A DNA stretch of 64,000 bases from Zymoseptoria tritici IPO323 (Eukaryota; Ascomycota; Dothideomycetes; Mycosphaerellales; Mycosphaerellaceae), in contig NC_018212.1 of NCBI RefSeq assembly GCF_000219625.1, forward strand, positions 1,302,001 through 1,366,000, read 5' to 3'. Under the pieces are notes generated by a model. The model was not told where the DNA came from. It did not search any database and was given only the letters and a program-made list of their open reading frames with translations. How positions within the stretch are numbered: position 1 is the first letter of the stretch; each line of letters starts with the position of its first letter. This document shows positions 9,836 to 29,916 of the stretch, one piece after another. The position numbers and the translations under genes were made by a program.

Positions 9836-10316
9836 TGTGTCTGATTGTGGAAGGGGTTGTCGCGTATGCGAAGGAGATGGATTGGAGGTGGTACTTGGAG
9901 GGCGGGTGAAGGGCTTATTAGCTGGTCGTGGTGAGCTTTTCGTGTGGTTGGCAGAAGATCAGGTGTGCAAGGAGAGAGGCAACGAAAGTCGAGGTCAATG
10001 GACAGGTTGCATTCGAGACGGAGACGCGGAGCTGCACGGACTTAAGCTTTGGAGATCGCGTGGGGTCGGAACGACGATTCGGATCAGTCAGCAGCCGTTT
10101 TCGTGGACGTCAGGTTGGATATTTGGAGATGATGAAGTAAAGACAGAAGTAAAGACAACAATTTCGCGATATTGGCTGGATATCGTGGAACGGCACTTCG
10201 CGAACTGACCACACCAAGACCAAACAAGGACCTCACTGCCATAACACATTCCGACTTCGAAAAAGCTGCACAAAATGATGTGGTAGCAACGAGCAAAAGA
10301 CTTCATATCAAACGCC
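9836..10316. other. divergent promoter region (Ysy6-like / mdm20)
   Basis: 481 bp between divergently transcribed genes. No gene or strong motif is seen. Confidence 0.5.
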
Positions 10317-12676: not shown

Positions 12677-13138
12677 CTACTTACCCCCCACCCCCAACTC
12701 AAGCTCCGCCAACCGCTTCCGACTAATCTCCGCCTTCTCCTCCTCCCCCTCCCCAAAACTCTCCGGCGGATCGATCCCATTAATCCTCCACAACCAAGCC
12801 GGCGCATCAATAATATTATACTCCAACTTCAATCCTCGATCCAACGTGTACGGCCTCAGAATCCCATCAAACGTGTCCATCATACCCTTCGATCGAGCCT
12901 TGTTGTTCGGATCCTGATGGCGTGCAATGTGGATGATTTCGATGAGCACTTTGTCGGCATTGCTGGTTCCGGCGGTGTAGAAGTCCTCGACGGGGAGTTT
13001 GTAGAAGGTCACGTTGACGTAGTAGTCGGGCAGCTTCGCCGTGTTGACGTACCAGTCTGTGATTTCACGGGCGAGGGAGGCTTTTTCGGAGGGGTCGGTG
13101 AAGACGGTGGAGGAGTGGGAGATTTTCCAGATGGGCAT
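12677..13138 (-). CDS. tautomerase-superfamily protein (cis-CaaD-like)
   Basis: Intronless, 153 aa. The ATG at 13138-13136 was chosen because it yields Met-Pro-Ile-Trp, placing the catalytic Pro as residue 1 after Met removal, the hallmark of the tautomerase fold. Family members include fungal proteins related to cis-3-chloroacrylic acid dehalogenase. IARHQDPNNKARSKGMMDTF carries Arg residues of the kind that bind carboxylates, and the C-terminal half (LEYNIIDAPAWLWRINGIDPP) fits a fungal Tautomerase_3-type protein. The natural substrate is unknown; real dehalogenase activity is not implied. Confidence 0.8.
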   Translation of the reverse strand: MPIWKISHSSTVFTDPSEKASLAREITDWYVNTAKLPDYYVNVTFYKLPVEDFYTAGTSNADKVLIEIIHIARHQDPNNKARSKGMMDTFDGILRPYTLDRGLKLEYNIIDAPAWLWRINGIDPPESFGEGEEEKAEISRKRLAELELGVGGK

Positions 13139-13690
13139 TTTGAAGGTGCGTGGAGGTGAGGTATTGGTTTGGAGTTGAGCTTTAGTGTCGTGGATCTTGA
13201 GGCATGGTATTGATGTTGTGTTTGCGAATCTATAGCATCCGTCCTTCTCAGTGATTAGTATTCCAATGACGAGCTGATCAGTAATCAAATATGGCACTGA
13301 GGATAGAACGTAGATCCTGAATGCTGTCATCGAAATTCAAGCTTCAAATCGATAGAAAGCAAGAAGGCACTAGTATTTGCAGGTATTACAAGAATGCATG
13401 CATTCTCAAGGTAACTCAACTGAAGCTTAGATTCTGTGTGCTAGGAGAGCCATCACGCAGATTCACATGTACAGATTCAGCCTTGAGGGAGGTCGATCGC
13501 TCGCCATCAGAGCACACTCAACGCATTTGAGGTTCCACATAGAGACAATGGCGTTGAATCCTCATTCTCCTTGCAGACCACGACCACAGCCTCCATCGGG
13601 TGCATGGGAACGAAGCCTGATTTTGATGAGATGATGTGACAAATCGCAATCGCATGATCCCCATTCGCCTCTCCCCGTATGCGCAAACAT
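13139..13690. other. intergenic, nothing recognised
   Basis: 552 bp between the tautomerase start and the end of the M3 peptidase gene. No coding signal or repeat is seen. Confidence 0.5.
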
Positions 13691-16084
13691 TTACGGACAT
13701 GCATCCTGGTTTGCTCCAAGCCACGCCAGGTACGGTGCTGAACTCGGTTCATGACCCAGGTAATCGATCAACGTCTTCATCTCCGGCTGTGTTCCACCCA
13801 TGCAGAGTACCAGTTCCCGATACCTCCTCCCGTTCTCTCTGCTCAAGACATCACCGGCGAACCCAGCCTCAAAGATATTGATAGCGAACAGACGACCCCT
13901 ACATCTCGTCAGTAATCCCAACGCTGGACTTGATCGCTCGTCATCACTTACAAGATGTAAGCATAGTACCCAGCATCATACTTCCCGTTAATAGCGCGGA
14001 ACACCGACTGGCCTTGACAATACTCCCATCCTTCCAGGTCCTCGCCTCCGTGCATGCAAAAGATCTCACATCGCAATTTGTTGTAGAGCATGGCCAAGTT
14101 TGTCTGTTCAAGCTCGTCGTGCGAGGCGGGGCTATGGACCTGCATGTCGTACATCGCATAGAAAAGCTCGTTCAGTGACGTACGCACTCGCCTACTGGTC
14201 TCGTTCGACCCCAGTAAGATGGCACGTTGGCGGCTGATCTTGCGTGGAGCTTCTCCAGTGCCGGCGTCGTCTGCCTTGCCATGTCGCTGAGCTCTGGGAG
14301 TGGCAAGCCATGCTTCCTTCATGGTGGGACTAATATACGAGTAGTGAAGCGACACATCCTCGATGACCTGTGGATCCCAGAAGAATTGCTCTAGCATCAT
14401 GCTGTGATGACGTCGGGTGATAGAATCAGCGATTGCTCACCAAAGAAATATCAACACGAGAGATATTTGCGAGCTCGACAACAGACTTCTGCCCATTGGA
14501 CTTACCTAGGAGTTTCCACGAAGTCGCTGCTGACTGCGTGAAGCCTTGAGTATCGGGATCGACTGAGCAAGTTGTGGTACATATGCCCTAATTCATGGAA
14601 CAGACTTCGTACATCGTTGAGATCTAGTAGAGTGGGCTTCGTAGGGGTAGGCTTCAGGTAGTTCATTACCAAGCACGAACAAGGATGAAACCAGCTCCCG
14701 TCTGGCTTCTGGAACCTCTGTGGATCTAGTCAGCAAACATACATCTTGAGGATCCGAAGAAAGGAATGCGCACTTTTTGCAGGGTGTACTGGCCAGCGTG
14801 CGTAAACTTTCCTTCACGAGGGAAGAAGTCGAAGTATGCGTATCCCAGGAAGTCGGGCTCGGAGTCCACTGCCCATGCGGAGAACATTTGAACATCTTCA
14901 TGCCAGATACTAGCAGCGGTTTCAACTGGGACCAGCCTCACGCCCAATATATGGACGTACATCTGAAGAAGCTTGGCCAGAGTCGAGTTGAGCTCGAAGT
15001 ACTCTGACACGGGGATTCCATGACCATCGGTTCCGTTCCGCTTCAGATCAGCTTGCTTCTCGAAGTAGGCCTTGTCCCAGAAGTAAAGCTTGATCTCATC
15101 AGTTGAGTCGTTGTCACTGTCTGCGAGCGCTTGTTCAACTTTGGAAGCCCGTAACTCATCGGCAGCCCGCTCGGCAACCGGTCGGAGAGCCGTACGAACC
15201 TCTGACAGCAGCCGATGCACCGCTTCAGTCTTGACCATCTTTCGTGAGGTCTTGGAAGCGAAGTGATTAGACCAGCCTAACAATTGGGCTGTTTCATCTC
15301 GAAGGAGAACAAGTTCTCGGTGTAGCGGGACATTGTCTGGCATGCGATTCATCACTGCATAATACATCTTCTTCCGAGTGGCCTCCTCCGTGGCAGATTC
15401 AAGTACACGCGAGCTGTACGCATTTTTAGTGGGCACCCACACATGCTCGGCATACTCATCATGGCCGTGCCTCAGCTGCGCTACAAAGGATCTGGGCACG
15501 CCACGTAACTCGCTCCGTGTAAGCCACAACCCAGTCGTCTCGTTCGCGAGATTCTTCCTACAACTCTTGGCCAGCTCAATAGCTCGTTTCTTCTTTGCGA
15601 CGAATTCTTGTCGGCGGGCAGCATCAGTAATCCCGCAACCTCCGTCTATGAAGGCTTCATGCAGCTTGCTCAGATAGTGGAAAGATTCGTCCGTACCACT
15701 TGGACCGAGGGAACGGGCGGCCTGGAATTGCTGCCAGACACGGTGGACAAGGGCGAACAATTTCGTTTGCGAAAAGAACTCGGCTTCGGCGTTGCTGAAC
15801 ATTTCAGCTGCCGCGTAGGAGGCATCTCGGAGCTCTTTCACCGGGTGAGTCGAGGCGTAGAATCTAAGGTGATTCTCTTTCTCTGATCTCGAGTTTTCAT
15901 CCTCTGCGATTGGCTGGATGACATTCGAGAAAGTGGCGTCGTCGAGATCAATGTGGACGAGTCGATGACACAAAGCCGTGGTATGTTTGGTGACAGCTTC
16001 GGCGTCCGCAAGTATTGCAACAGCCGTGGTGTCGAATGACGGCGCTTTCTTCAGCTGGAACGGGTCAGAGTAACCCGGCGGCAT
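13691..16084 (-). CDS. M3 zinc oligopeptidase (thimet/saccharolysin type)
   Basis: Zinc metallopeptidase cutting short peptides. Four exons (16084-14774, 14717-14506, 14401-13952, 13898-13691) give 726 aa, normal for family M3. The active site is intact: HELGH at about residues 478-482 (LFHELGHMYH) and the third ligand Glu at about 505 in SSDFVETPS, followed by MMLEQFFW. The C-terminal part has the usual YNKLRCEIF and FEAGFAGDVLSRENG..Y segments. The segment before the active site is Cys-containing (FHPCSCLVMNY), unlike most relatives, which have ALVCNF. It is divergent from the UstYa gene at 16633 across 548 bp, so shared control is plausible. It may trim the RiPP peptide, or be a housekeeping cytosolic enzyme that marks the cluster edge. 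Confidence 0.9.
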
Positions 16085-16632
16085 CGCGGAGAAGGCGAGG
16101 GAGAGAGTTGCATGTTGATGAAGGTAGGACTAAAAGTCGTGTGGAAAGGATGTCCAGCGACTTGATCCGACTGAGGTGCCCTCCAGCCCGGGTCACGTGT
16201 TTGGTTGCTTACTCAGCTCAGCCTTTCGCCGTTTCGGGTAAGGTACCTTACCTTACCGGGGGCAGGGAACGGCGGCTATGCCTCGGAGGCAAAAGACTTC
16301 ACTGTCCATACTCACGGGCAGGCAACCGTCGGCCTTGTCAGAATTCGACGGTTACATACCTCAAGGTAGGAAGGAGTAGGAAGATGAGCGTGTCCTCTGT
16401 CCGCGATTGCAGAACGCTTCTGACCGGCTCATTATTGGACGGCTCACCGTTCGAACCACGACTTGCAGACGATCGATCGGACCAGGCGAGTATCAGAGCA
16501 CCCATGTCCTTGCAGATCCTAGAGGTGGCCATATCGACGTGCTTGCCACTCGCTGTAAGCAGTATGTCAGTCACACTGCGCTCTCTTTTCCCTACCTTTC
16601 TTTCCTTATGCACCGGAAAAGACGGCCAAGAC
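16085..16632. promoter_or_regulatory. divergent promoter with 16-bp palindrome
   Basis: Shared 5' region of the M3 peptidase and the first UstYa-like gene. At 16237-16252 lies a perfect palindrome, GGTAAGGTACCTTACC, followed by another CTTACC copy. It lies about 150 bp from the peptidase ATG and 380 bp from the UstYa ATG. A regulatory role is inferred only from position and symmetry. Confidence 0.4.
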
Positions 16633-17700
16633 ATGGACTCTGCGAAGGGAAAGTACTCACCACTCGCGTCGGAACCTGGGATTGAGCTTCAAACATGCTT
16701 CGAGCCGGAGAAACGGCGCAGAATCAGCATCAACGTCTTCCTCGCAGCGACTATCCTCCTGGGCACTTACCTCTTTGGCATTGCGACAACGTTCGTCTTG
16801 ACCAGCGCATCTTGCGATCTGGGCACACAGCAAATCCACCCTACCGACTACCTACCCGCGGCAAAGGCTGTTGAACTAGAGGTGAGCACTGATGTGTACA
16901 AGACCTACAAGCAATCCTAGACTTTGCCGGCTCCTGTCTGCCTGCAGGTCTCGTGCGGCATCAATGCCGCGTTACCTCGGCCACCGCTGACCTGTACACT
17001 TGGACTGCCCAGACCGTTCATTTCATCAACGGGCCATGGTTCGACGAGCGAGGGGATCCATTCTTTCACAGCGGCCAAGACGATACGGAGTACTTTGGGA
17101 AAGACGGTGACGAAGTCGATCGTGCGTGGAGCGAGCTGCTTATAAATCGCTACTTCCTCATCTCCGACGATGAAGCGCTGCAGGCTTGGGGTCCGGATTA
17201 CAAGAAATACTACAAGTACCCGGGTGACAACGAAACCACAGCCGGGTACGTTGCTGGGATAGACGTGCTCCATCAGTTGCATTGTTTGGACCACCTTCGC
17301 AAGGTCCTCAATCCAGCACGCTACAACTCGACCATGTCCAAGACATTCCAAAGCTATCATACCGGTAAGCTCTTCTACCTTCTCTTGATGCGATGCTTCT
17401 TCGTTCGCTGACCGCAAAGACCACTGCATCGACCTGATCCGTCAGTCGATTCAATGCCAATCGGACATCACGCTCAATCCAACCCGCTGGTGGCCCGCAT
17501 TAGGCGGTACGGGCAGGAACTTCATCGACACCGACAGACCGCATACGTGCCGCAACTTCGGCAAGATTCGAGAGTGGGCACATGGACGTTATGAGCAGTG
17601 GCATCGAAATACCAACCAGCATCTGCCGCCCGTGGAAGAGGCAGCGTTGCACATGGAAGACGTAATGGAGTATAAGCACAAGCAGGACACATCTTCATAA
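16633..17700 (+). CDS. UstYa-family (DUF3328) oxidase, copy 1
   Basis: UstYa-type proteins are membrane-bound, secretory-pathway oxidases that cyclise or crosslink fungal RiPP peptides. Exons 16633-16881, 17013-17364 and 17420-17700 give 293 aa. The start was chosen so that a short hydrophilic leader (YSPLASEPG) precedes one transmembrane helix at about residues 36-57. Both signature motifs are intact: HQLHC at about 170-174 in VLHQLHCLDHLRK, and HC at 202-203 in DHCIDLIRQSIQC. The conserved late Cys (PHTCRNFGKIREW) is present. Intron 1 is 131 bp with a GCTGAC branch site. The frame stays open upstream of 16633, so a longer N terminus is possible. With its neighbours it supports a RiPP pathway. 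Confidence 0.88.
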
Positions 17701-18361
17701 AGAGATAGCGGCGAGCAACGTTCGGTGATCTCGGTGATCTCAATGTCAGACGATTTCCAAGTTTCAAATCGATTGGTGCCATCAGCATCCCGGCGGCGGG
17801 GGACCAGACCTCACGCACGGTCAAAGGGAAAACACCGCCGCGAAACGCCCTCAGTCACTCATAACAATCGTCTGTCAAGCGGTCAAAGAAGGACTGCAGC
17901 ATCAAAAAGTCAAAGGATCAACATGCTAACTCGAGACTTGACAGCACCGCCACATTGTTTGAGGCACCATTTCCAACGTTTGCGCCACTGCCGCTTTGAA
18001 CTCATGTTATGCGGGCGGCTGCATGTCACCGAACTCACTTGGCTACCAACCTAGTATTAAGCCATATGGTAAACAGCTCGGCAGAAGCGAGTTATACAAC
18101 AGAAAGACGCTCGAATCTCTGATAGTGATCAATAGGGCAAAACCACGGAAAAGCAACGCTGGGTTTGGTCGGTGCAAACACTGCCGACTCGATTTGATCG
18201 GACGAATAATGCAAGTGGAAAAAGCCATTGCAATTTGACCAATCATCCTACTTCTCAATGGAACCCTCCAGACTACTCTCCGACGGTGTTGTAACGAGCC
18301 TTGACAGTCGATAGCTTTGCCACCTGTTGCCCTCAAAGCACTTCACTTGATCGACGTCGAC
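17701..18361. other. convergent 3' flanks of UstYa-1 and precursor
   Basis: 661 bp between convergent genes. No gene or clear repeat is seen. Confidence 0.5.
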
Positions 18362-18936
18362 CTACTCGTGCGTGATCTTCCACTCGACATCGGGCTCATC
18401 ACGCTTGATCTTATCCTTCCACTCGACGTCGCCCTCGTAGCGCTTGGTCTTGTCCTTCCACTCGACGTCGCCCTCGTAGCGCTTGATCTTGTCCTTCCAC
18501 TCGACGTCGCCCTCGTAGCGCTTGGTCTTATCCTTCCACTCGACGTCGCCCTCGTAGCGCTTGGTCTTGTCCTTCCACTCGACGTCGCCCTCGTAGCGCT
18601 TGGTCTTGTCCTTCCACTCGACGTCGCCCTCGTAGCGCTTGGTCTTGTCCTTCCACTCGACGTCGCCCTCGTAGCGCTTGGTCTTGTCCTTCCACTCGAC
18701 GTCGCCCTCGTAGCGCTTGGTCTTGCCCTTCCATTCGACGTCGCCTTCGTAACGCTTGATCTTGTCCTGGCCGTTGCGTTCGTTCAAGTCGAAGACCTGG
18801 ACTGCGTTTGGAGCTATAATTCAATGAGCAGGTGTGAAATGTCGTGGTCATAGGTACACCGACCGGCGTGGGGAATTGAGAGTGCCGAGACGCAAGTCAC
18901 GGCCACGAGGCCGAGCAAGAGATTGAGTAACTTCAT
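18362..18936 (-). CDS. repeat-containing RiPP precursor (dikaritin-like, Kex2-processed)
   Basis: Two exons (18936-18858 and 18813-18362, intron 44 bp, donor GTACCT) give 176 aa. Residues 1-20 (MKLLNLLLGLVAVTCVSALS) are a secretion signal. A spacer ending DKIKR leads into nine tandem 13-residue units: YEGDVEWK, then Asp (Gly once), Lys, Thr (Ile twice), Lys-Arg. A tenth, degenerate unit lacks the Tyr and the dibasic site (DEPDVEWK) and ends the protein. Signal peptide plus tandem cores separated by Lys-Arg is the architecture of UstA/GigA-type precursors cut by Kex2. UstYa-family genes on both sides support the call. The donor is the weakest point: GTCGGT, 7 nt upstream and in another phase, would give a different junction. 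The product structure is unknown. Confidence 0.85.
18401..18751 (-). repeat. nine 39-bp tandem repeats encoding RiPP cores
   Basis: Nine head-to-tail 39-bp units, nearly identical even at synonymous sites, each encoding Tyr-first YEGDVEWK plus a Lys-rich linker ending Lys-Arg. Differences are few: one Asp/Gly change, two Thr/Ile changes and scattered silent changes at the array ends. A diverged tenth unit occupies 18365-18400. High DNA identity suggests recent expansion or gene conversion. Confidence 0.95.
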
Positions 18937-19321
18937 TTCGGAACCCCGCTTGTATGGCGCTGCAAAGTTGAAATCGTTCAAGTTGAACAATTGTACATCT
19001 TACTTCAATCTCGCGACGAGGGCACTATATGCAACCTCTCTCGTGCTTGCAGGGATGGCGACAGGAATGGCGCTTACTGTCCAGAACCACCCCTTTGCCC
19101 CCTCCGAGCTTCCATCGACAATTTCTCGACTTTGCATTGGCTCGGGATTATCGGTCTCATGCCCAACGTGCGAGACTCGCTCGATTCGTGCTTCCACTCG
19201 GCCAGGTTCTGACCAAAAAGTAAAGATCAGCGCATCTCCTGGTAGGGCGGTGAACCAGTCCAAATGTCACGATCCGTCGAACGCCGATTGTACGGGAACG
19301 TAGCTAGGGTACATCATGTAC

Positions 19322-19461
19322 AGCGTCTGAGCACATCGGAGGGACTTGCGGTGGGCGTCCAGGGGGCAAATCAAGGGTCGGATTGGCCAATTGCCTCGTG
19401 TTCCGGCCATTCACCTGTGGACAAGGATTGGCCGGTGATCCCTCCGATGTGCTGAGACGCT
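19322..19461. repeat. inverted repeat, 23-bp arms
   Basis: The left arm 19322-19344 (AGCGTCTGAGCACATCGGAG plus GGA) is the reverse complement of 19439-19461 with one mismatch, around a 94-bp spacer. It resembles a decayed MITE or hairpin element. Part of the arm sequence (ACATCGGAG) recurs in modified form (GCATCGGAG) in the arm at 20151. Confidence 0.7.
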
Positions 19462-19816
19462 AGAGCGTTTCTGCAGCCCTTGCCATGAGTGCATGCAACG
19501 CAATGCAACAACCTGTCTGTGTACAGTAACGCTCGGCTTACATAACCACCCAAACAGGCAATGGTTACATGATCAGTAGCTATGGCCGCTCGACCGGTGG
19601 AGCGGCCATGGCAAGCAACATAGCAAGCTGTTCTTGGCCTAGTATCTATCGCTTTCGGCTTAGCCGTCGTCAGCAATAGCTAGACCGGCCGTTCAGCGCG
19701 AGCGCGACACGTCTTACGCATCTTAAAAACCACTTCCGCAGACAGCCGAATACGGACCGTCTCCTTGCCTTACATTGCGTTGCATGCTGTTATGGCAAGG
19801 GCTACAGAAACGCTCT
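19462..19816. repeat. inverted repeat, 44-bp arms
   Basis: The left arm 19462-19505 (starts AGAGCGTTTCTGCAGCCC) matches the reverse complement of 19773-19816 with about four or five differences. The spacer of about 267 bp contains a further small palindrome. It directly abuts the preceding inverted repeat, as if elements had nested. Confidence 0.7.
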
Positions 19817-20150
19817 GCTGTACAGTGGACATCGTGCACCGGAAAAGCGCCGGGATCGTCCAGCGAATGCGAGCAATGACCCGAGCATCACTTTAGTGGA
19901 GACTGCGACTGTCATTAGCTTGTTTTGAGTTTGCTGGATCCGCGGTATTCTCGGATGCATGAGCACCTCTGTATCAGCAAGCTTTACAGTCCATATCCTG
20001 CATACGGGAAGCAGCGCTAGCTTCCGGAGACCTTGTCGCTGCCTTTTTCAGGCAAGTATCGACGTTTTTCCAAGATGAGATTGGTTCGGAGTCGCCGGTT
20101 TGACCGCCAGGGAATGGGCACTACTTCTTGCTTTTGGTCCAGAGTCGGTA

Positions 20151-20312
20151 GTACAGCAGGTGGACGCATCGGAGTGCACGCCCCCCTTGTAGGCTTCATG
20201 GGCCAAGTCCAGGGTAAACCGTGATTGATGAGAATCAGGCCAATCCGGCCCTGACCATATCCCCCTGCCGACGACAAGGAGGTGTCCACTCCGATGCGTC
20301 CACACGCCGTAC
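20151..20312. repeat. inverted repeat, about 39-bp arms
   Basis: The left arm 20151-20190 (GTACAGCAGGTGGACGCATC..) pairs with 20274-20312 at roughly 80-85 percent identity around an 83-bp spacer. It could be a MITE-like remnant related to the element at 19322, since both begin near TACAGC and share CATCGGAG. Confidence 0.65.
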
Positions 20313-21546
20313 AGCATCTGACAGCATCATAGCGTCGAAGACTCGAAGGGACTCCTGTTCTTGCAGGCTCTAGGGTGTGACCCGGTCGACCGCTCGTATA
20401 TCGGCTATTTGCTATCAAGTCGACAACAGTTTCTTGCGCTGTCGAAGAGGTCATCCTGGCTCTCGTCCTTGAGATGCCGGCAAAGCTGGATTGTCTGTGT
20501 CTTCAAATTCGAGAGCCGCTGGAATCCGATAGGATATTACCCTGCTAGTAGACTTCAGGTCCAAGACTGGGATGAGGAGGTTAATAACCACTTCGACGCG
20601 CTTCTCCGCTTTGGAGCGGTGCTGTGGTACGATTTCCTACAAATGCTTCAGTGCAAGGAGTCAGTTCCTGATGTCGACAACCCTGCACACTCCCGCCATT
20701 CCTTCGAATGTCGGTGTGATGCTCAAGGACCACCTTTTTTGGCCTTGATGTCAGCAGGCGTAGCAAGACGTGCTTGTGACTTGTGGGGACCTTGGAGGTC
20801 CCTTGCAAAGAAATGGTTCGACTCACTCCCACTGGCAAGGAGGTGAGGTCCACGGGTCGGATTTGATAACGTCATCGGTCGGTCAATGGCCGGGTCTTCG
20901 TCGGAGCGTGAGAGTGAGTGCATATGAGAAATCCCTTTCGGAGTGTAATATCAATGCGTGTCTGAACTTGCGAAGCGCGCGGCTTACCCAACGCGTCGGA
21001 TCCATGCGTGCGAGCTGGCCGGGGCCGCGAAGCTAACGTAGCGCACGCAAAACTGCTTGTCGATGGTGGAATGATCGTGCTCAGTCGATGACGAGAACCA
21101 TGTAGCACCGAACGGACTGCCGGCCCATGGATCACAATGGTCGGTCGGCGGTGTGAATGCCACCAATGGTCAACGCCGATCTATGCGATGCCGCGGAGGT
21201 GTGTCGTCACTGGTGCCCCAGTATCGGTATGCCATTGTCAAGGAGCTCAGGACGGCGAGGGTCGAGCGGGAGTCTCTACGATGCACTTGCAACCCGCTCA
21301 ATCCGGGGATGGTTTCTGCAGGGAGGTAGACGAATTTTCAATGGAATTGCTGGCCCGGTAATGGGAAGCGTACAGGTCTCGGGAATGCATCGAATCACGA
21401 TTTCAATTCCTGGGTTATTGTAGCACTCTCTGCCGACGTTATGGTCCTGGAGTTGCACCTGTTTGTGGCATAAGTTTATGCTCTGAGAGCGAAAGTCCAG
21501 ACCTCTCAGCAGGCTGCCTGACCGAGAGGTAATTCGAACTCACGAC

Positions 21547-23037
21547 ATGTCCTCCTTCCTCACATCGCGCGCTGTCTTTCCAAGCATGGAAGCAGACCTG
21601 GCTGAACAAAGACTCCTTGATGGACAAGATCTGGAGACTGCCGGCAGCTCTCGACACAGCACGCGGACTAGTTGGTCTGGCGCCTGGAACCCACGGCTGA
21701 CATCGGCCTTTCACAGCCATATACTGCCATGCATTTTGCCCTCTTGGTTGCTGCCCAGCAGGATCCAATCGCCAGATCTCGCAGTATCGCCAAGATCAAC
21801 CGCCTACCTGGACGGTATGCGAGGTCTTGTTGCTCTTCTCGTCTTTGTTCGCCACTTTTCACTACCGTGGCAGCCACATCTGGACTATGGATACGGCCAG
21901 TATGGCTCCTACCATGGACTTCTTCGCTTACCGTTCCTCCGGATCTTGTTCGCGGGACCATGGGTACCAATGATGTTTGTGGTCTCTGGATACGTCTTGT
22001 CGGCAAAGCCGCTAAAGCTCGCTCGAAACGAAGCATGGCAGGGTCTCTTCCTTTCGATGGCGAGCTCGACCTTCCGACGGGCCATTCGGTTGTTTTTACC
22101 GCCGGTCGTTTCGACATGTGCAGTCATGCTGATTGTGCATCTCGGCGGTTTTAGCTTCGATTATGAACTGATGCCTGGTCGAAACCCCGAACATCCTGCA
22201 GCTCTGGATTCCGTTGGCGCTCAACTTGGGGACTGGTGTCACTTCGTGCTCTACGAGCTCACCAATCCTTGGGATTGGCACCAGCGGCAGCTTATGGCGT
22301 ATGGTCCTCACCTTTGGACCATTCCTATCGCATTTCAGGGAACGCTCGTCGTTTTTCTGGCGTGTCTTGGCCTTGCCCGAACTAGACCTCGGATGAGGGC
22401 AGTGTCCTTGGGCTTGGGCATTGTATGGAGCGAACTATGCGGCAGAAAATACATCGCACCATTTCTTGGCGGCACGTTGATTCGCGAGTTGAGCTTCTCC
22501 AAACAGGCCGCCAGCGGACCAGGTGGAGCCAAGGAGCATACAACAGGTTCGATGGTCAGGTCCTCGTTCGCATATATCGGACTCATGTTCGGCCTCTTTT
22601 TGGGATCCTTTCCGCGGTTCAATGACCATGGCCGAGCTTGCACATTTGGGTGGAAGCTACTATGCGATATCACCCCGAATTATCGCTTCTGGCACGGAAT
22701 TGCTGCCTTCTGTGTCTTGCTTGCGATTGATCAGGATCGCACGCTGCAACGACCTTTCGAACATCGGATTATTCAGTACATGGGAACTATCTCATTCTCG
22801 TTCTACATCGTGCACGAGCCGTTCCTTCACGTGGTAGCGTTTTACCTACCTGGGTTTTTCTGGACCTGGATTGGTCAGGAGGGTTGGCTAAGGTATCAAT
22901 GTGGGTTCGCAATGGGAATGCTTGCCAGTCTTTTCATTTTGGTATGGATTGCCGATGTGTTCAAGTCAAACGTGGAAGACCGTTGCGCAGTCCTTGCCGA
23001 AAGAATAGAGGCTCTTTGCTTTACGCATACAACATAG
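21547..23037 (+). CDS. acyltransferase-3 family membrane protein
   Basis: Multi-span membrane acyltransferase of the OafA/YrhL-like Acyl_transf_3 family. Single exon, 496 aa. The hydrophilic N-terminal 80 residues are followed by the family start YLDGMRGLVALLVFVRHFSL, which carries the expected Arg and His near the first helix. Later come VPMMFVVSGYVLSAK (family motif F..SG[FY]), a long loop ending HLWTIPIAFQGTLVV, and a C-terminal ISFSFYIVHEPFLH helix. About ten hydrophobic segments are visible. Such enzymes acylate small molecules or glycans. Inside a RiPP-like cluster, acylation of the peptide product is the natural inference; the substrate is not shown by sequence. Confidence 0.85.
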   Translation: MSSFLTSRAVFPSMEADLAEQRLLDGQDLETAGSSRHSTRTSWSGAWNPRLTSAFHSHILPCILPSWLLPSRIQSPDLAVSPRSTAYLDGMRGLVALLVFVRHFSLPWQPHLDYGYGQYGSYHGLLRLPFLRILFAGPWVPMMFVVSGYVLSAKPLKLARNEAWQGLFLSMASSTFRRAIRLFLPPVVSTCAVMLIVHLGGFSFDYELMPGRNPEHPAALDSVGAQLGDWCHFVLYELTNPWDWHQRQLMAYGPHLWTIPIAFQGTLVVFLACLGLARTRPRMRAVSLGLGIVWSELCGRKYIAPFLGGTLIRELSFSKQAASGPGGAKEHTTGSMVRSSFAYIGLMFGLFLGSFPRFNDHGRACTFGWKLLCDITPNYRFWHGIAAFCVLLAIDQDRTLQRPFEHRIIQYMGTISFSFYIVHEPFLHVVAFYLPGFFWTWIGQEGWLRYQCGFAMGMLASLFILVWIADVFKSNVEDRCAVLAERIEALCFTHTT

Positions 23038-23837
23038 ACAGTCTTTACATAAGACGGTGCATTCATTCTAACGCGCTCGCCTGGGACCAATGCCGTTGAA
23101 CGAAAGCAACCTCCCTCCCGAGGCAGATCACGATCGAATTGCATTGTAGATTCTGCCCTGCGTGGCTTTTCGTCGTTGCTTAATTGCGTGTCGAGATTCG
23201 GAAGGGTCAAATAGCAATGAATCTACTCCGTACAGTCTGTGGACTGCATACGGGAGGTAGTGCTTATGTCGATATTTCAATCGATGCGACAAATTTTCCA
23301 TATCCGTAATGGTCTGGAGCGGTCGATATCGTCTTATTAAGGGCATGGATGCAACTTCTCATTTTTGGTCCAAACTCTGTACCTTGCCCTTGCAGGTCTT
23401 ACTCGCTACTCCCTACCCTTGGTTAATCCGCTCCAGTCCGGTCCAAGGCTGTTGGCAATGGAACTCTGACATGGTCCTTGACTTTGCCAATGCGGTCCGT
23501 CATCGGACGCATATACTCGGGTCCACTACTGCTGCAGTGCAAGGCGGCCGCGTACATACCCCTCGTCTGTCATACAAGCGCATGGTGACATGAACACGGG
23601 TGGAGATGCGGTCAGAGCGTGCGGTCCACTGGACCGACTCTCGATCGTGAGGTGACATTGCTCGAGCGACCGTCAGAGGTTTTGATCGAACGGGCATTGA
23701 TCGACGTTTCATTCGCCTGATCAGGCAGCAAATCAGGCACCACGCTGTCGAACTCATGCGCTGTCGTTCACTACCCTAAATAGCCCAACCATTACTCACC
23801 TTTTACTGGAAGAGCCAAGTTATCAGGAGCCAACACG
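23038..23837. other. intergenic, UstYa-2 promoter region
   Basis: 800 bp without a recognisable gene. It includes the palindrome at 23622-23636. Confidence 0.5.
23622..23636. promoter_or_regulatory. CGG-N9-CCG palindrome upstream of UstYa-2
   Basis: CGGTCCACTGGACCG is a perfect inverted repeat around a central base, about 200 bp upstream of the ATG at 23838. Inverted CGG triplets are the usual half-sites of Zn2Cys6 regulators. I did not find the same site before the other cluster genes. Confidence 0.35.
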
Positions 23838-24756
23838 ATGCATGCCGGAGATTTGGAAAAGCTCGAGCAGCAAGCGCCCTTCTTGCCACCGGATGCTGAT
23901 GATATCGATCTCACATCAGACTCAACATTCGAAACGGGGCCGAATCGAACATGGCCGACGTGGCCAACCATCATCTCAGGCTTTCTGTTTGTCGCCTCCT
24001 TGGTTATAATCCTCGTTTCAGCGTTGATACCTCCGACGGACTCTCAGTGTGTTCGGGCTATGCATGCATGGTGTAAGTGAAGTGGCTCTTGGGACGAATC
24101 CGACACTAATACCCACTCAAGCGCCAATGCTCGAGGCACTTGAATACCATCAATCAGACGACGCCTATCAATCTCGGGGTCTTTATATGGGCCAACCCAC
24201 AGATGTGCTGGAGGACGCCTGGGAAGTCTTTTGGAAAGGTATCTCCGCCCACAGTGCACTGCTGATTGCATATTCTGACAGGTCCAGGCGGCTCGCTGGG
24301 TATTCCCGAGGATAAACTACCTTTGTTCAACAAGTCCTCAAACGAGAGAGACTGGCATCACCTCCCCGATGATGTGGGAGGAGGCATACAAGCATTCTTT
24401 GAAGGATTCCATGATTTACATTGTCTTGTACGTTGTGAATGCTATGCATTTTTTTCCAAACACCAACTGACAATTTTGATACGCAGAACCTGGTCCGTCA
24501 GTACACGTATCGAAATGACTGGAACTACACCAATCACTTCTTTACAAGTGAAAGGATACCAGTCCTATTTCATGCCGAGCACTGTTTGGAGATGCTGAGA
24601 GCAAAACTGATGTGTGATGCTGATACCACACCTTACCTGATTGTGAATGACCCAGAGCGAGGAGAGGTAGTGGATGTGAGGACTCGCCGTACATGCCACA
24701 ACATACCTGCTATCAGGCAATGGACAAAGGAGCACATAGTGGTCTTGGACACTTGA
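23838..24756 (+). CDS. UstYa-family (DUF3328) oxidase, copy 2
   Basis: Second membrane-bound UstYa-type peptide oxidase. Exons 23838-24072, 24122-24238, 24282-24427 and 24487-24756 give 255 aa. The hydrophilic acidic N terminus is followed by a transmembrane helix at about residues 44-66 (TIISGFLFVASLVIILVSAL) and the family segment SPMLEALEYH. Motif 1 is HDLHC at 161-165, directly followed across an intron by NLVRQY. Motif 2 is HC at 198-199 in HAEHCLEMLRAKLMC. The late Cys (RTCHNIPAIRQW) is kept. All introns have good donors (GTAAGT, GTATCT, GTACGT). It is tail-to-tail with copy 3, 63 bp apart. Two different intact UstYa proteins in one locus is usual for dikaritin pathways. Confidence 0.88.
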
Positions 24757-24819
24757 AATACTTGTCATGTCAAATATTGAAGCATTTGACTGTACAGCTG
24801 ATTCTGGCCGGCGACCATT

Positions 24820-25665
24820 TCAAAGATCCAGCTCTACGAACGTCTTCAATGCCCGACCATCCTTCACGAAGTTATCGCTTGCCCACCTGACGATTTTGTC
24901 GTAATCTCTGCAAACGTGTGCAGATTTCACGTGCGCACCAACTCCGTGGGCGGTGGTACTCTTGTTCGAATTGACTTCGAGAAAGAGCGTAGGTTCGAAG
25001 GCGCACAAGAAGTCTTGTCGTAACTTTTCGATGCATTGATCAAGTACTTTCCGTGACGGCAGCGTATATAGGGCTGGATCCGGTTGTTCATAGAAGGCCC
25101 GGCGAATCATCTTCTGCGATGCCGTCAGTAAGTGGTCGCAGACTCAAGGTGACTATCGGTCTCATCTCACCAGACAGGTCATCTGGAGGGAGACTCCCGG
25201 AATTACCAATGGCTCGTTCTCCTGAGTGGTCGGCGTTGAAGTGGGTCTCCTACTCGAAGTAGGTATCTGGTCGGCAACAACAGCGCCATCTGATCAATCG
25301 GTCGTCAGAAAGGGATCGATATAAAATGTTTCCGAGGTCGAGTTGCTGCTTACATGGACTGATCAAATCCCACGCCTCCTCCCGACCAGCCGTGGGCGAA
25401 CCTTTATAGACGTGTGTAACCGCATGAAATTCCCAGGAGTTTTTCCAGGAGTAATCGATTGCTGTTCTTCCAAGCACTGGTCCCACAGTCAGCACTGCCT
25501 GATGTTGGAGAACTCGAACCGCATACAATTAGGGAACAGCTTATCGATACACGCCGCCGGTGGAGGTGCTCTTCCTCTTGTGAAGATGAAGAAAACCAGA
25601 GACGCGGCAAAAGAGATGATTGAAAGTCTCAGACGCCAGAGGGCGTGATGATTCTCCTTGACCAT
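24820..25665 (-). CDS. UstYa-like protein lacking the signature histidines, copy 3
   Basis: Exons 25665-25527, 25476-25354, 25289-25171 and 25113-24820 join in frame to 224 aa. Architecture follows DUF3328: a transmembrane helix near residues 14-28, an AIDYSWK..W segment, YKGSPTAGREEAWDLI (family .YKGPP...D.AWD.L), then GVSLQMTCLKMIRRAFY where active relatives have G.D..HQLHCLN.LR. Motif 1 is therefore LQMTC (122-126), with both His replaced, and motif 2 is DQC (152-154) in LDQCIEKLRQDFLC, with His replaced by Gln. The cysteines and the late HVCRDYDKI block remain. Frame and splice sites are intact, so it looks like a maintained pseudoenzyme rather than a wreck. The start is uncertain: the N terminus is shorter than usual. 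Confidence 0.78.
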
Positions 25666-26458
25666 GCTTCTGTCGAACTCCACTTGAGCGTAGAGGGGAG
25701 CTGCTGAAAGAAGTGGTGGGCATGAAATCCTCGCAAGCCGGCAAGACCAACTACCTGGGAAAAAGCCGCCAAAATGTGCCAGCACACTTGCTGGAGAAAT
25801 GGTGGCCAGATGGTACCGCCCCTTCCGTGATGTTCAGATCGAGACTGCGTTCTGTACCCAGGACCGAATGGCGCTTACTTCTGGCAACTCTATCGATCCC
25901 CGGGAATTGACGGTTACTCGAGCTCACGTTGTCCCGGAAGCATTGGCATGTCTTGAAAGAAGCAAGGTCTTCATTGCAGGGTGCACGGTGTGAACGAAAT
26001 CCCGGGATGTTACCGAAAGGACATGGGTGAACAGATCGAACGCACTGACCGCATGACTTTGCCCGCCACAAGGACCGTCCGAGACATCCACGTACCGGTG
26101 GGTGGAAGATGCCGCGGAGATGCCTTCACCGCCGGAGTGGACGATGATGGGTGTTTTTTATCCGCCCTGCAGGAGCAGAAGCCCTTGGCTTCCCAGGACG
26201 GCAGCAGAATGTCTAGGATTCATCCATCGGAGTGTTTCTGTATCGCGTCTCGTTTTTGAAAATGTCTACAGCGCCTAGAACCATGATTTCCAAATCAGCG
26301 AATTGAATTATCCGTGGATATCTACTGGACAATTCGACGGTGCATGCTACTCCGCCCTCGCCCAAGTCTCGACCTAAGATACCCATCTGCGAACTCACCA
26401 GGCTCATTTTCGAGGGCAACCCGAGGGATACCTTGGTTACTTCGCCCAAGAAGAACAC
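25666..26458. other. intergenic, UstYa-3 / MFS divergent region
   Basis: 793 bp between divergent genes. Short open frames exist on both strands, including a minus-strand frame of about 93 codons at 26213-26494 that overlaps the MFS start, but I recognise none of them. It may hold a gene remnant. Confidence 0.4.
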
Positions 26459-27832
26459 ATGGCGTGCGAAAACCAGGGCACCGGCACCCGACACGCTTCC
26501 GTGAGAAAGATTCCCTTGATGATGGCCGCAGCAAGCTCGTCCGTGTCATTGCCCTCGAAGCATGGAGCAGCATCGCTACATGCTAGGTGGAGCGCTCGCA
26601 AAATCTCCATGGCGGGTGCCTGTGCTCTACTGGTCTTCACAGCGTGCGGCATCAACTTTTCGTTCGGAGTCTACCAGGAACACTATGACACTCTCGGAGG
26701 ACCGTTCCGTGATGCCACTTCAGGTCAAATCAGTGTTATCGGGACTCTGGCATCCTCCATGATGATGATTGGCGCACCTGCGGTCGATCCACTGGTGAGA
26801 TGGTACGGCACTCCGGCCGCTGTGACGCTTAGTGGTATACTCTTCGTGGTATCGGGACTTGCAGCGTCTTTCGGAACCCATCTTTGGCACTTTCAGCTCG
26901 CTCAAGGATTTCTTCAAGGTTGCGCTGCTTGTCTAGCTTATATTCCGGCTGTCGTGATCGCTCCGCGTCTTTTCCCGGCCCACCGTGGTTTAGCAACAGG
27001 AGTGGTCACAAGTGGTACTGGACTTGGGGGAGTGATGTGGGCGCCACTACTTCGGCATGCTCTCACAAGGCTCGGCTACCGAACGACTTTGGTCTTTGCT
27101 GGCTTGTTTGCAGGTGTATTGATATTCTCTGCGGCGACCGCTCTGCTAAGAGTTGACACTTTGCCTTTGAATCAAGAGCACTCGAACCGGTCAAACAACG
27201 ATGAATGTCCACAGTCAACGGAAATCCAACAACCTCGAATCTTGCTGGCACATGTGATGGCAAGCTCCTTCCAGTCGGCCGCATACTTCACGCCCATATA
27301 CTTCATGTCATCACTGGCCCGGAGCCTTGGATTTTCCGAAATCTCAGGGGCGAACATCATTGCTCTGTGCAATCTTTGCAATTGCGCTGGCAAAATTCTT
27401 GTTGGCCACGCTGCAGACAAGGTAGGACGACTGAAGCTCCTAAGCATCTCAACTACGGTCAGTGCGCTGGCTACGTTCGGCATTGCTGCCGCTGCGACCT
27501 CTCCACTACCGCTCAGTGCACAAAGAACATCGTTGTTGCTATATGCTGTGACATATGGCTCGTCAGCTGGAGCGTACGTTGCATTGTTACCAACGGCGAT
27601 GATCGATCAATTTGGAGTCAGCGGCTTCGCAAAGATCAACGGCACACTGTATATGTATCGTGGTATTGGAGCGCTGGCTGGAACGTTCATTGCGGGTTCA
27701 TTAATGGTTGCGCCCGGAGATGTTGAAGGACATGTAGCCTGGGACTTTGTCAGGACGCTGGCCTTCACAGCAGCATGCCTGTGCGTAGCTGCGTCTTTTC
27801 TCTTGTGGATACGGAGGGTCTGCGATCAATAG
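26459..27832 (+). CDS. MFS transporter, monocarboxylate-porter type
   Basis: Single exon, 457 aa. After a hydrophilic N terminus of about 50 residues, twelve hydrophobic helices can be followed. The first is ACALLVFTACGINFSFGVYQ, where the G..FSFGVYQ pattern is typical of fungal MCT-like (MCH) transporters. Other landmarks are FLQGCAACLAYIPAVVIAP, FPAHRGLATGVVTSGTGLGG (the MCT signature after helix 4), a hydrophilic central loop (about residues 225-260) and NCAGKILVGHAADKVGRLK. A downstream ATG near 26519 is an alternative start. Inside the cluster it could export the peptide product or give self-protection; that is inferred from position only. Confidence 0.88.
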   Translation: MACENQGTGTRHASVRKIPLMMAAASSSVSLPSKHGAASLHARWSARKISMAGACALLVFTACGINFSFGVYQEHYDTLGGPFRDATSGQISVIGTLASSMMMIGAPAVDPLVRWYGTPAAVTLSGILFVVSGLAASFGTHLWHFQLAQGFLQGCAACLAYIPAVVIAPRLFPAHRGLATGVVTSGTGLGGVMWAPLLRHALTRLGYRTTLVFAGLFAGVLIFSAATALLRVDTLPLNQEHSNRSNNDECPQSTEIQQPRILLAHVMASSFQSAAYFTPIYFMSSLARSLGFSEISGANIIALCNLCNCAGKILVGHAADKVGRLKLLSISTTVSALATFGIAAAATSPLPLSAQRTSLLLYAVTYGSSAGAYVALLPTAMIDQFGVSGFAKINGTLYMYRGIGALAGTFIAGSLMVAPGDVEGHVAWDFVRTLAFTAACLCVAASFLLWIRRVCDQ

Positions 27833-27928
27833 CTGTTTCGGGAACGATCGAGGCACTCGCCAAGTCAAGTACAACAGTAACTGTTCGTAACGCACGTATA
27901 TAAGCCCGACTTATGGCGAAGGTTCGAA

Positions 27929-28723
27929 ATGGATCGTAATAATCTGGCGATGCCTATATACGTCTCGCGAGATCCAGAGACTCGTCCCAATCACAGAAAT
28001 CTACAGCATTCATCGCGAGTGGGCAATGCATCCATGCTCTCCCGCGCGGGCCTTAGAGACTGCCCACTTTCAAGTCGTTCATGGCCCATCACCATGTCAT
28101 CACAGGTCCTGTCCCAGAGTAAGAATCAGCGTCCATTCCCTGACGATGATAACGGCGACGCCCAACCAACGCCAACGCCCAATAATGTTCTTGGTATCCT
28201 GCCGAAGTGTGCCCCACACGGCAAGGACATGGTCTTCGGAAGCCAAGCCACCGCCAAATACCGCTTTCACGGGACAGTCTTTTCAACTGACTTGGTGTCA
28301 CACAGCCTGTCCATGCACGAGCAAGGTACCTATAAGCGTTTCCATTGCATCATTCTCGCACCTCTACTTGCTCGATCCTCACGCCATGCTCATTCCCCGA
28401 ACCTGTTCCGCCGAGATCGATGCGACTTCCTTCGAGAGCTCATGCTGTACGACTCGCGACCCCTGCTCACATCTATGCTTACTCGAGATCATGGAACTTT
28501 CTCAACGAGGAACATTGAGCCGGGGAGAGGCTGGAGTCGACGCTCGGAGCCTACAAGGCGACATCAAAGCCTCACTCGGAATGACGACTTAGCCGGAAAG
28601 ACGGAGTCGACTCATGCTAGGTACTGGGTATGCGAACCATCAATCAGTCGAATTTCAGTAACCCTGACGATTAGTAAACAGCACCCAAACCATTGCAACG
28701 ACCTACTGCTGAGCTCGTCCTGA
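27929..28723 (+). other. orphan open frame, 264 codons, doubtful gene
   Basis: An uninterrupted frame between the MFS and oxygenase genes. A TATATAA lies about 30 bp before the ATG. The product is Ser/Arg/His-rich without helices, domains or signal peptide, and a second frame (28026-28592) is open over the same DNA. I see neither a zinc-cluster motif nor any cluster-type enzyme. It may be noncoding, a degraded gene, or an undetected spliced gene. Confidence 0.2.
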
Positions 28724-28815
28724 GTGCCTGTTGGCTCTCCTATTCTTCCCACCAGCGGACGCGCACGATCCATCACTGGAAGGTCATTCCCATCGAAACG
28801 TTTCTCATCACTCCG

Positions 28816-29916
28816 ATGACGATTCCGCTGAAGGAGGTGTCCATCGCTCCATTGCCGACGATCGACTATGACCTACTGTTGGCTCGAGATCGATTCGAGA
28901 TTGCACGTCTCGTGGACATTTGCAGAACTCACGGTTTCTTCTATCTGAAATTCGCGGGCTCACAGGCCGAACGTCTTCTGTCCAATTCGGACGATGTCGT
29001 GGATTTGATGCGAGACTACTTCCAACAACCTCTGGAGACCAAGCTCAAAGATGTCAGAGGGACCGTCACGCATGGGTAAAAGTGCACCCTCCCAACATTC
29101 CGACGAAAGACACTTATGCTATGATCACAGCTATTGCCCGACAGGGAGGTACACCGGCGCGAAAAGAGGCGAAAGAGATTGCTACGAGACTTTGAAAGTA
29201 TGTGCTTGGTTTGACCATTCTGTTGTCCTTGATATCTTACTGATGACCCGCAATGGTAGATTTCGGAGGCTGAGATGGACGCTAGAGCGCCGCAACTCCC
29301 CAATGTGGTGCATCAACATACCGAGCTCTTCAGCGACTTCATCTCGGGATCACACGCAGCATTGATCACAGTCCTGAAGTGTCTATCCATTGGCATGAAT
29401 CTGGATGAGACCGAGCGCTTTGAGAACAAACACCGGCCAAATGAACCCGCATGTACCACAATGGTGCTCTTTCGTTACCCAAGACAGGTAGTAGATGGCG
29501 AAGGTATCGGCCACAATGTGCACACGGACATTGGTAGCCTGACCCTGCTTTACTGTCAAGACTGGGGATTGCAACTGCTGAGTCCAGAGAATAACGAGTG
29601 GGGTTTTGTCGAACCACGTCCTGGGCACACCATCATCAATGTTGGAGATTCGCTGCGCTTCCTGTCGAATAACCAACTACGATCTTGTGTCCATCGAGTG
29701 ATTCCGCTTACGGAGCGGCAAGAAACCGACAGGTACTCAATTGCCTACTTTCTTCGCGCTGAGGATCAGTCGGTCTTTGTGGACAGCAAGAAAAGGGAGC
29801 TTTCGGCACGTTCGTGGCACGATGAGAAGTACGAAGTTTTCAGACAGCCTCACGAGGTGCAGGAGATTGATATGGTGTTGACGGGTGGAATGGAGAAGCA
29901 GGGCCGCTTGTGCTAA
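28816..29916 (+). CDS. 2-oxoglutarate/Fe(II) oxygenase, IPNS-like
   Basis: Member of the isopenicillin-N-synthase/flavanone-hydroxylase-like dioxygenases. Exons 28816-29075, 29131-29197 and 29260-29916 give 327 aa. The N-terminal DIOX_N part has VSIAPLPTIDYDLLLARD and THGFFYLKF. The iron site is complete: HTD at about 197-199 (HNVHTDIGSLTLL) with distal His at about 254 (LRSCVHRVIP). The 2-oxoglutarate-binding R-x-S is RYS at 267-269. The HGYCPTGRYTG block formed across intron 1 matches the family. It likely hydroxylates, desaturates or cyclises a cluster product; the substrate is unknown. The gene is the last plus-strand member before the adhesin. Confidence 0.88.

What the first reader, a model, noticed from the sequence alone, without database searches (positions are those of the whole stretch)
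13691..29916. Candidate undescribed dikaritin-type RiPP gene cluster
A Kex2-type repeat precursor, three UstYa/DUF3328 genes, an M3 peptidase, an acyltransferase-3 protein, an MFS transporter and a 2OG/Fe(II) oxygenase sit within about 16 kb. Known dikaritin loci (ustiloxin, phomopsin, asperipin, epichloecyclin) combine a repeat precursor with UstYa-type oxidases. This set lacks a recognisable tyrosinase, P450, FMO or S41 peptidase and adds an acyltransferase and an IPNS-like oxygenase, so the product should differ from those families. Core and tailoring chemistry are inferred.
Basis: partly seen in the sequence, partly recalled or inferred. Interest (0 to 1): 0.93.

Follow-up and report, generated by a model that had tools for sequence, protein, structure and literature searches.

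The report
Fungal cyclic-peptide cluster with odd oxidase
A fungus whose genome matches the wheat pathogen Zymoseptoria tritici carries a gene cluster that probably cuts ten short peptides from one secreted protein and then oxidatively cross-links them; the cluster type is known, but its core peptide, its tailoring genes and one oxidase that has lost its predicted copper-binding residues are unusual.

Summary
At 18362-18936 (minus strand) a two-exon gene encodes a signal-peptide-like segment and ten Kex2 repeats (nine YEGDVEWK cores, one DEPDVEWK). Within 16 kb lie three UstYa/DUF3328 genes, an M3 peptidase, an acyltransferase-3 protein, an MFS transporter and a 2OG/Fe(II) oxygenase. Genome searches put no tyrosinase, P450, FMO or S41 hit in the window. 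The genome fits Z. tritici IPO323 (partly recalled). Best reading: an asperipin-like RiPP cluster, a dikaritin only in the broad, DUF3328-defined sense. A locus on C6 also pairs a Kex2-repeat gene, a UstYa gene and an M3 gene, the last truncated. New point: UstYa-3 keeps its cysteines and membrane helix but none of the four copper-ligand histidines; of 41 UstYa gene groups it is the only one above the Pfam cut-off whose motifs are truly missing (one other has a motif split by an intron). I read it as a pseudo-oxidase partner subunit (inferred). Expression, product and conservation in relatives were not testable. 1,758 such loci are published (PMC7329392), so: new member of a known kind.

The parts
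18362..18936 (-). RiPP precursor (KEP) gene: exon 1 18936-18864 (or -18858), exon 2 18813-18362; signal-like segment, then 9 x YEGDVEWK and 1 x DEPDVEWK, each unit after KR
13691..16084 (-). M3 peptidase, 4 exons, 726 aa; HELGH at 478-482 and a downstream DFVETPS segment; no hydrophobic segment over the threshold used; nearest solved relatives thimet oligopeptidase and neurolysin
16633..17700 (+). UstYa-1, 3 exons, 293 aa, one membrane-type helix, HQLHC and HTDHC motifs; shares a 548-bp divergent intergenic region with the M3 gene
21547..23037 (+). Acyltransferase-3 protein, single exon, 496 aa
23838..24756 (+). UstYa-2, 4 exons, 255 aa, HDLHC and HAEHC motifs
24820..25665 (-). UstYa-3, 4 exons, 219 aa: matches UstYa profile positions 21-220, cysteines kept, all four motif histidines replaced (LQMTC, VLDQC); tail-to-tail with UstYa-2
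26459..27832 (+). MFS transporter, single exon, 457 aa; resembles monocarboxylate/lactate transporters below their curated cut-offs
28816..29916 (+). 2OG/Fe(II) oxygenase, 3 exons, 321 aa, HTD at 191 and a distal H and RxS by eye

Best explanation
A fungal RiPP cluster of the Kex2-repeat/UstYa kind. The precursor enters the secretory pathway through its signal peptide; Kex2 cuts after each KR and frees nine 13-mers that begin with Tyr (YEGDVEWK-xKx-KR) and a Tyr-less C-terminal piece. UstYa-1 and/or UstYa-2, membrane-anchored binuclear copper oxidases, oxidise the peptide, most likely joining the Tyr (possibly Trp) side chain to a nearby residue to make a ring. UstYa-3 keeps the fold and cysteines but not the copper ligands, and most likely serves as a non-catalytic dimer partner. 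The M3 oligopeptidase trims the follower residues, the 2OG oxygenase and the acyltransferase decorate the core, and the MFS protein exports it. Shown here by sequence: gene content, repeat structure, signal-like segment, intact or lost active-site residues. Inferred: every reaction, the order of steps, the dimer-partner role, the membership of the right-hand genes and the existence of a product.
For: Precursor anatomy. Three UstYa proteins at 154, 143 and 61 bits against PF11807. In print, 1758 of 7878 KEP genes (22%) have DUF3328 neighbours and the DUF3328 count peaks next to the KEP gene (PMC7329392, section 7 read). KexB (the Kex2 orthologue) is needed for normal ustiloxin B production (PMC4740483, passages). 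The core has Tyr directly after KR; cross-linking of an N-terminal Tyr is described for ustiloxins and phomopsins (PMC9233826, passages). Among the nine Tyr units the core is invariant in protein although two of its codons vary synonymously, while two spacer positions vary in protein. A second locus in the same genome pairs a KEP (DPEAQRGGIMDYIKR repeats), a UstYa gene and an M3 gene within 3 kb. Catalytic residues are intact in M3 (HELGH), 2OG (HTD), UstYa-1 and UstYa-2 (HxxHC pairs). The DUF3328 protein CctR is a copper-dependent dimer (PMC12435403, abstract and passages). One 7-mer, AATTCGA, occurs in 5 of 6 cluster promoter regions (5 copies, 0.39 expected), but it is the best of all 7-mers tested and uncorrected.
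Against: No transcript, peptide or mutant evidence. No transcription-factor domain was found among the ORFs scanned between 13.7 and 29.9 kb. No 8-mer is shared by 4 or more of the 6 promoter regions and the best 10-mer by only 3. M3 and 2OG proteins show no signal-like or membrane segment, so if cytosolic they would meet the peptide only outside the secretory lumen. The M3-UstYa and AT3-UstYa co-location (2 of 18 M3 and 2 of 14 AT3 groups within 5 kb of a UstYa group; binomial P 0.013 and 0.008; at 10 kb 0.035 and 0.022) counts the window itself, so independent support is one other locus each. The C6 M3 copy is truncated and no HExxH was found on its strand. No homologue of the precursor or of UstYa-3 reached E <= 0.001 in the protein database (the search needs shared exact 5-residue words).
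Confidence: 0.78

Rival explanations
1. Two neighbouring systems. The left part (precursor, UstYa-1, M3 peptidase) is the RiPP cluster; the right part (acyltransferase, UstYa-2, UstYa-3, MFS, 2OG oxygenase) makes or modifies a different small molecule, since UstYa-type oxidases also act on other products.
For: A gap of 2.6 kb with MITE-like repeats separates the precursor from the acyltransferase. The DUF3328 protein CctR modifies the cyclic peptide cyclochlorotine (PMC12435403), by recall a non-ribosomal one. An acyltransferase-3 gene also lies about 4.3 kb from a UstYa gene on C2; my repeat scan flagged no KEP in the 10-kb locus L046 there, which covers the UstYa side only.
Against: The genes lie together between a NatB subunit gene and tautomerase gene on the left and a GLEYA-domain gene on the right (the tautomerase could itself belong). 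Three DUF3328 genes with one precursor is within the published range of one to five (PMC7329392).
Confidence: 0.3
2. A linear secreted peptide (pheromone- or signal-like KEP) that merely lies near UstYa genes.
For: Most published KEP genes (6120 of 7878) have no DUF3328 neighbour (PMC7329392); the core is strongly charged.
Against: Three UstYa genes within 7 kb of the precursor; 65.6% of repeats in DUF3328-linked KEPs contain Tyr against 38.2% otherwise (PMC7329392), and nine of ten cores here contain Tyr; [quoted passage not shown]
Confidence: 0.12
3. A decaying cluster: UstYa-3 is a dying copy and the locus is silent.
For: UstYa-3 lost all motif histidines; MITE-like repeats lie upstream of the precursor; the C6 sister locus has a truncated M3 gene.
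Against: UstYa-3 reads through four exons with GT-AG introns and no internal stop, scores 61 bits over profile positions 21-220 and keeps the cysteines; the other gene models have no internal stops.
Confidence: 0.15

Closest known systems
Asperipin-2a cluster (aprA, aprY, aprT, aprR; as described in PMC6514808, passages)
   Same: Repeat precursor, DUF3328 oxidase and transporter; no tyrosinase among the four genes listed
   Different: Core FYYTGY against YEGDVEW(K); one DUF3328 protein against three; a reductase instead of M3 peptidase, acyltransferase and 2OG oxygenase
Ustiloxin and phomopsin (dikaritin) clusters (PMC6514808, PMC12048977, PMC9233826; passages)
   Same: Core starting with Tyr; several DUF3328 proteins; Kex2-type repeat precursor; peptidase or transporter
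   Different: No tyrosinase, S41 peptidase, P450 or FMO hit in the window; core is not Y-x-I-G/P; has M3, AT3 and 2OG genes
Sister locus C6:722-725 kb in the same genome
   Same: Kex2-repeat gene, UstYa gene and M3 peptidase gene together
   Different: Repeats of DPEAQRGGIMDYIKR type; M3 truncated, no HExxH found; AT-richer on one side
CctR-type copper DUF3328 oxidases (PMC12435403, abstract and passages)
   Same: Same protein family; UstYa-1 and UstYa-2 carry the HxxHC pair
   Different: CctR is a homodimer with all ligands; UstYa-3 has none of the four histidines

Membership tests
KEP (Kex2-processed repeat protein) precursor | N-terminal secretion signal | tested here: met
   hydrophobic segment at residues 3-21 by hydropathy; no signal-peptide predictor was run
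KEP (Kex2-processed repeat protein) precursor | repeats separated by KR sites | tested here: met
   ten units after KR
Dikaritin, broad (DUF3328 as class-defining enzyme, as recounted in PMC12048977) | DUF3328 protein with two HxxHC motifs, here next to a repeat precursor | tested here: met
   UstYa-1 and UstYa-2; UstYa-3 does not meet it
Dikaritin, narrow (five-gene definition of Ding et al., as recounted in PMC12048977) | tyrosinase gene in the cluster | tested here: not met
   PF00264 on the whole genome: nearest listed hit on C7 is about 0.84 Mb from the cluster
Dikaritin, narrow (five-gene definition of Ding et al., as recounted in PMC12048977) | methyltransferase gene in the cluster | tested here: inconclusive
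   none seen by Pfam in 33 of the 45 frames (some trimmed) and in the gene models or pieces scanned; no dedicated genome search
Dikaritin, narrow (five-gene definition of Ding et al., as recounted in PMC12048977) | transporter or peptidase | tested here: met
   MFS and M3
Active UstYa/DUF3328 copper oxidase (for UstYa-3) | HxxHC(x)nHxxHC copper ligands | tested here: not met
   LQMTC and VLDQC
RiPP | modified peptide product derived from the precursor | not testable with these tools
   needs LC-MS/MS

The most novel reading that the evidence does not exclude
UstYa-3 is a dedicated pseudo-oxidase: a DUF3328 protein that has lost every copper-ligand histidine but keeps the cysteines and membrane helix, and pairs with UstYa-2 or UstYa-1 to form a one-active-site heterodimer that positions or selects the repeat peptide. 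That would be a regulatory or scaffold subunit for this copper-oxidase family, and would suggest why RiPP clusters often carry several UstYa genes.
Probability: 0.3. Interest if true: 0.72.

Novelty: new member of a known kind. Interest (0 to 1): 0.5.

Why it matters
If the cluster is active it adds an unexplored peptide to the chemistry of what looks like a major wheat pathogen, with tailoring genes (thimet-type M3 peptidase, acyltransferase-3, 2OG oxygenase) that do not appear in the descriptions of the ustiloxin, phomopsin and asperipin clusters that I read (passages only). The more general point is testable: the DUF3328 enzyme CctR was shown in 2025 to be a copper-dependent dimer (PMC12435403), and UstYa-3 is a natural example with the ligands gone and the scaffold kept, which bears on why clusters carry multiple UstYa proteins. 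My two paper searches on DUF3328, HxxHC, heterodimer, pseudoenzyme and inactive forms listed no report of such a partner; the lists were capped at 25 and 15 rows.

Tried and rejected
Chance repeat or coding artefact: rejected, because the array is in frame with KR at every boundary and follows a signal-like exon. A hidden tyrosinase, P450, FMO or S41 gene in the window: no listed hit. Alternative splicing that would restore the UstYa-3 histidines: I read the region by eye and saw none; UstYa-1 shows that an intron can split a motif, and so does the C7:642-kb paralogue, whose annotated homologue P0001 has both motifs. The PF20844 match on the precursor is under its cut-off (41.4 against 43 bits) and I take it for low-complexity similarity. 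A shared promoter motif: nothing I would rely on (see evidence). The C14 hits to the precursor are 22-23% identity with 9, 10 and 11 stops inside, so not precursors. The YVIP precursor reported for Zymoseptoria (PMC7329392): no repeated YVIP in the loci fetched by then; the whole genome was not searched for it. Structure prediction was not attempted: the stated rule admits proteins read letter for letter from the DNA, and the UstYa models are spliced by hand. An ancestry question (is UstYa-1 or its C7:642-kb paralogue the orthologue of the Cercospora proteins?) stayed open: identities are 46-47% and 48-50%.
Full report
IDENTITY OF THE GENOME. The window is C7:1302001-1366000 of a 39,686,251-base genome in 21 contigs. 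The size matches Zymoseptoria tritici IPO323 as I recall it; that IPO323 has 21 chromosomes is in an abstract shown in the listing (PMC13059725). The best UstYa-1 relative in the protein database is from Z. tritici ST99CH_1A5, and it closely resembles the locus C7:642 kb of this genome. I treat the organism as Z. tritici, not proven.

THE PRECURSOR. TRF finds a 39-nt unit, 10.1 copies, 94% matches, at 18377-18768. On the minus strand exon 2 (18813-18362) gives APNAVQVFDLNERNGQDKIKR (with the 50-nt intron) and then ten units: nine YEGDVEWK units with spacers GKT, DKT or DKI, and a last DEPDVEWKITHE. Exon 1 (ATG at 18936) gives MKLLNLLLGLVAVTCVSALSIPHA, with a hydrophobic segment at residues 3-21. 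Two donor sites keep the frame (introns of 50 or 44 nt). Across the nine Tyr units the core is identical in protein although two codons vary synonymously (both in the first unit), whereas spacer positions 9 and 11 vary in protein; with so few differences this hints at constraint on the core, no more. A protein search gave no hit at E <= 0.001 among 6614 candidates, and no paper in the held library contains YEGDVEW.

THE ENZYMES. The hand gene models use GT-AG introns (the acceptor of 2OG intron 1 was chosen because it joins the frame). Pfam: M3 on two exon pieces (105 and 36 bits), Acyl_transf_3 (64), MFS_1 (99), 2OG-FeII_Oxy (64) with DIOX_N (40), and UstYa at 154, 143 and 61 bits for UstYa-1, -2, -3. 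The M3 protein is closest in the PDB to thimet oligopeptidase and neurolysin (E about 1e-58) and has HELGH at 478 and a downstream DFVETPS segment. By recall such enzymes cut short peptides, which would suit trimming of 13-mers. The 2OG protein has HTD at 191; in the PDB it matches a broad set of 2OG oxygenases, best 3oox, with isopenicillin N synthase far down the list (2e-5 against 3e-15), so 'IPNS-like' is right only at superfamily level. The MFS protein resembles lactate, oxalate/formate and monocarboxylate transporters, all below their curated cut-offs.

THE THIRD UstYa. CctR, a characterised DUF3328 enzyme, is a membrane-associated homodimer whose two HxxHC motifs form a binuclear copper site; alanine replacement of the conserved His and Cys abolished activity, and loss of two disulfide cysteines largely abolished dimer formation (PMC12435403, abstract and passages). 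UstYa-1 (HQLHC, HTDHC) and UstYa-2 (HDLHC, HAEHC) have both motifs. UstYa-3 aligns through the same region as LQMTC and VLDQC: both motif cysteines and the two further cysteines shared with UstYa-1 and -2 remain, all four histidines are gone. It has one N-terminal hydrophobic helix, reads through four exons without a stop, and matches PF11807 over profile positions 21-220. How rare is this? PF11807 gives 61 exon-level matches in the genome, 59 over the cut-off (a lower bound by the tool's own note), which I grouped into 41 gene groups. At least one uninterrupted H..HC was found near 38 of 41 (37 examined, of which 3 had none; the other 4, all positive). The three without are UstYa-3; C6:1989371, a sub-threshold N-terminal match of 24.2 bits; and C7:642419, whose first motif is interrupted by an intron and whose second lies at an exon border, with both motifs present in the annotated homologue P0001. 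I did not check the second motif of groups where one was found, and a pattern search within 500 bases can also pick up a chance match. Of the 38 database homologues of UstYa-1, 37 have both motifs and one (P0038, 164 aa) has one. The database search with UstYa-3 found nothing at E <= 0.001 among 82 candidates; it needs shared exact words, so this says little. I read UstYa-3 as a pseudo-oxidase kept for a structural role; decay is the alternative.

SISTER LOCI IN THE SAME GENOME. C6:722-725 kb holds a Kex2-repeat gene (DPEAQRGGIMDYIKR units), a UstYa gene and an M3 gene; the M3 copy covers only profile positions 307-455 and no HExxH was found on its strand in the 10-kb locus L050. C2:1043-1048 kb holds another Kex2-repeat gene (TDDGDDAAVYAYAPSKR), UstYa genes and an S41 hit. 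C4:1682-1692 kb holds three UstYa groups with an S41 hit and a tyrosinase hit, which is closer to the classical dikaritin complement. Within 5 kb of a UstYa group lie 2 of 18 hand-grouped M3 genes and 2 of 14 acyltransferase-3 genes (binomial P 0.013 and 0.008; at 10 kb 0.035 and 0.022). That test used 40 of the 41 UstYa groups (the sub-threshold C6:1989371 was left out) and includes the window that prompted it, so it is suggestive only.

BOUNDARIES. Left: a NatB subunit gene (10287-12605) and a Tautomerase_3 gene (12677-13336); the tautomerase could belong, I have no evidence either way. Right: a GLEYA-domain frame from 30244, then a C2H2 zinc-finger protein and a carboxylesterase and further genes that look unrelated, among them a Zn2Cys6 protein at 54466-56229. 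Of 45 non-overlapping frames of 140 aa or more, 33 were scanned with Pfam, some trimmed to the start codon; 12 were not.

LITERATURE. Umemura 2020 (PMC7329392; abstract, section 6 part 1, section 7 and passages) found 7878 Kex2-repeat proteins, 1758 with DUF3328 neighbours; Zymoseptoria is named there for a YVIP core, not this one. Le Marquer et al. 2019 (PMC6339444; passages) list Z. tritici among species with ustiloxin/phomopsin-type repeats. Hassani et al. 2022 (PMC8939313; passages) list fungal RiPPs among the cluster classes predicted in three Z. tritici isolates including IPO323, and a 7-gene cluster BGF_11 with 10% similarity to ustiloxin, six of whose genes rise during infection stages B and C; I could not tell whether BGF_11 is this locus or another. 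Cairns and Meyer 2017 (PMC5561558; term counts and passages) has no 'RiPP' or 'ustiloxin' in its main text. The pangenome paper (PMC7014611; passages) names no RiPP class among its 39 clusters, eight being unclassified. Supplements were not available.

A CAUTION ON THE DATABASE. The UstYa-1 search returned a Z. tritici paralogue at 53% identity but no near-identical Z. tritici protein; with the empty precursor and UstYa-3 searches this could mean that these genes are unannotated, absent from the strains held, or not shown to me. I had no search left for a control.

JUDGEMENT. It is a new member of a published kind; the histidine-free UstYa-3 is the part worth a specialist's time.

Noticed in passing
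window 19316-19816: MITE-like dispersed repeats upstream of the precursor: about 145 bp at 19317-19461 with 23-nt inverted ends and partial matches of 71-93% at about ten other places in the genome, and a second element with 47-nt inverted arms (19462-19508 / 19770-19816), part of which matches C9:1262292.
   Followed up: partly
window 16237-16252: Perfect 16-bp palindrome GGTAAGGTACCTTACC in the divergent M3/UstYa-1 intergenic region; its 11-base half GGTAAGGTACC occurs nowhere else in the window.
   Followed up: partly
L015, L049, L050 (C6:722163-725030): Second Kex2-repeat gene with a UstYa gene and a truncated M3 gene, beside an AT-richer stretch with a retroelement-like ORF (reading by eye).
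   Followed up: partly
L039 (C2:1040000-1049999): Third Kex2-repeat gene (TDDGDDAAVYAYAPSKR units) with UstYa genes and an S41 peptidase hit.
   Followed up: no
C4:1682555-1691926 (L051, L052): Three UstYa gene groups with a tyrosinase hit and an S41 hit; no direct repeat of 30 nt or more was found in the 20 kb fetched.
   Followed up: no
C6:755440-757462 (L041): A tyrosinase hit directly beside a UstYa gene.
   Followed up: no
C7:642419-643272 (L042): Closest UstYa-1 paralogue (homologue P0001, 53%), with relatives in Cercospora and Septoria linicola.
   Followed up: partly
C2:3313836-3319417: Another acyltransferase-3 gene about 4.3 kb from a UstYa gene.
   Followed up: no
window 30241-36013: GLEYA-domain frame next to two long Ser/Thr-rich repetitive frames on the minus strand.
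   Followed up: no
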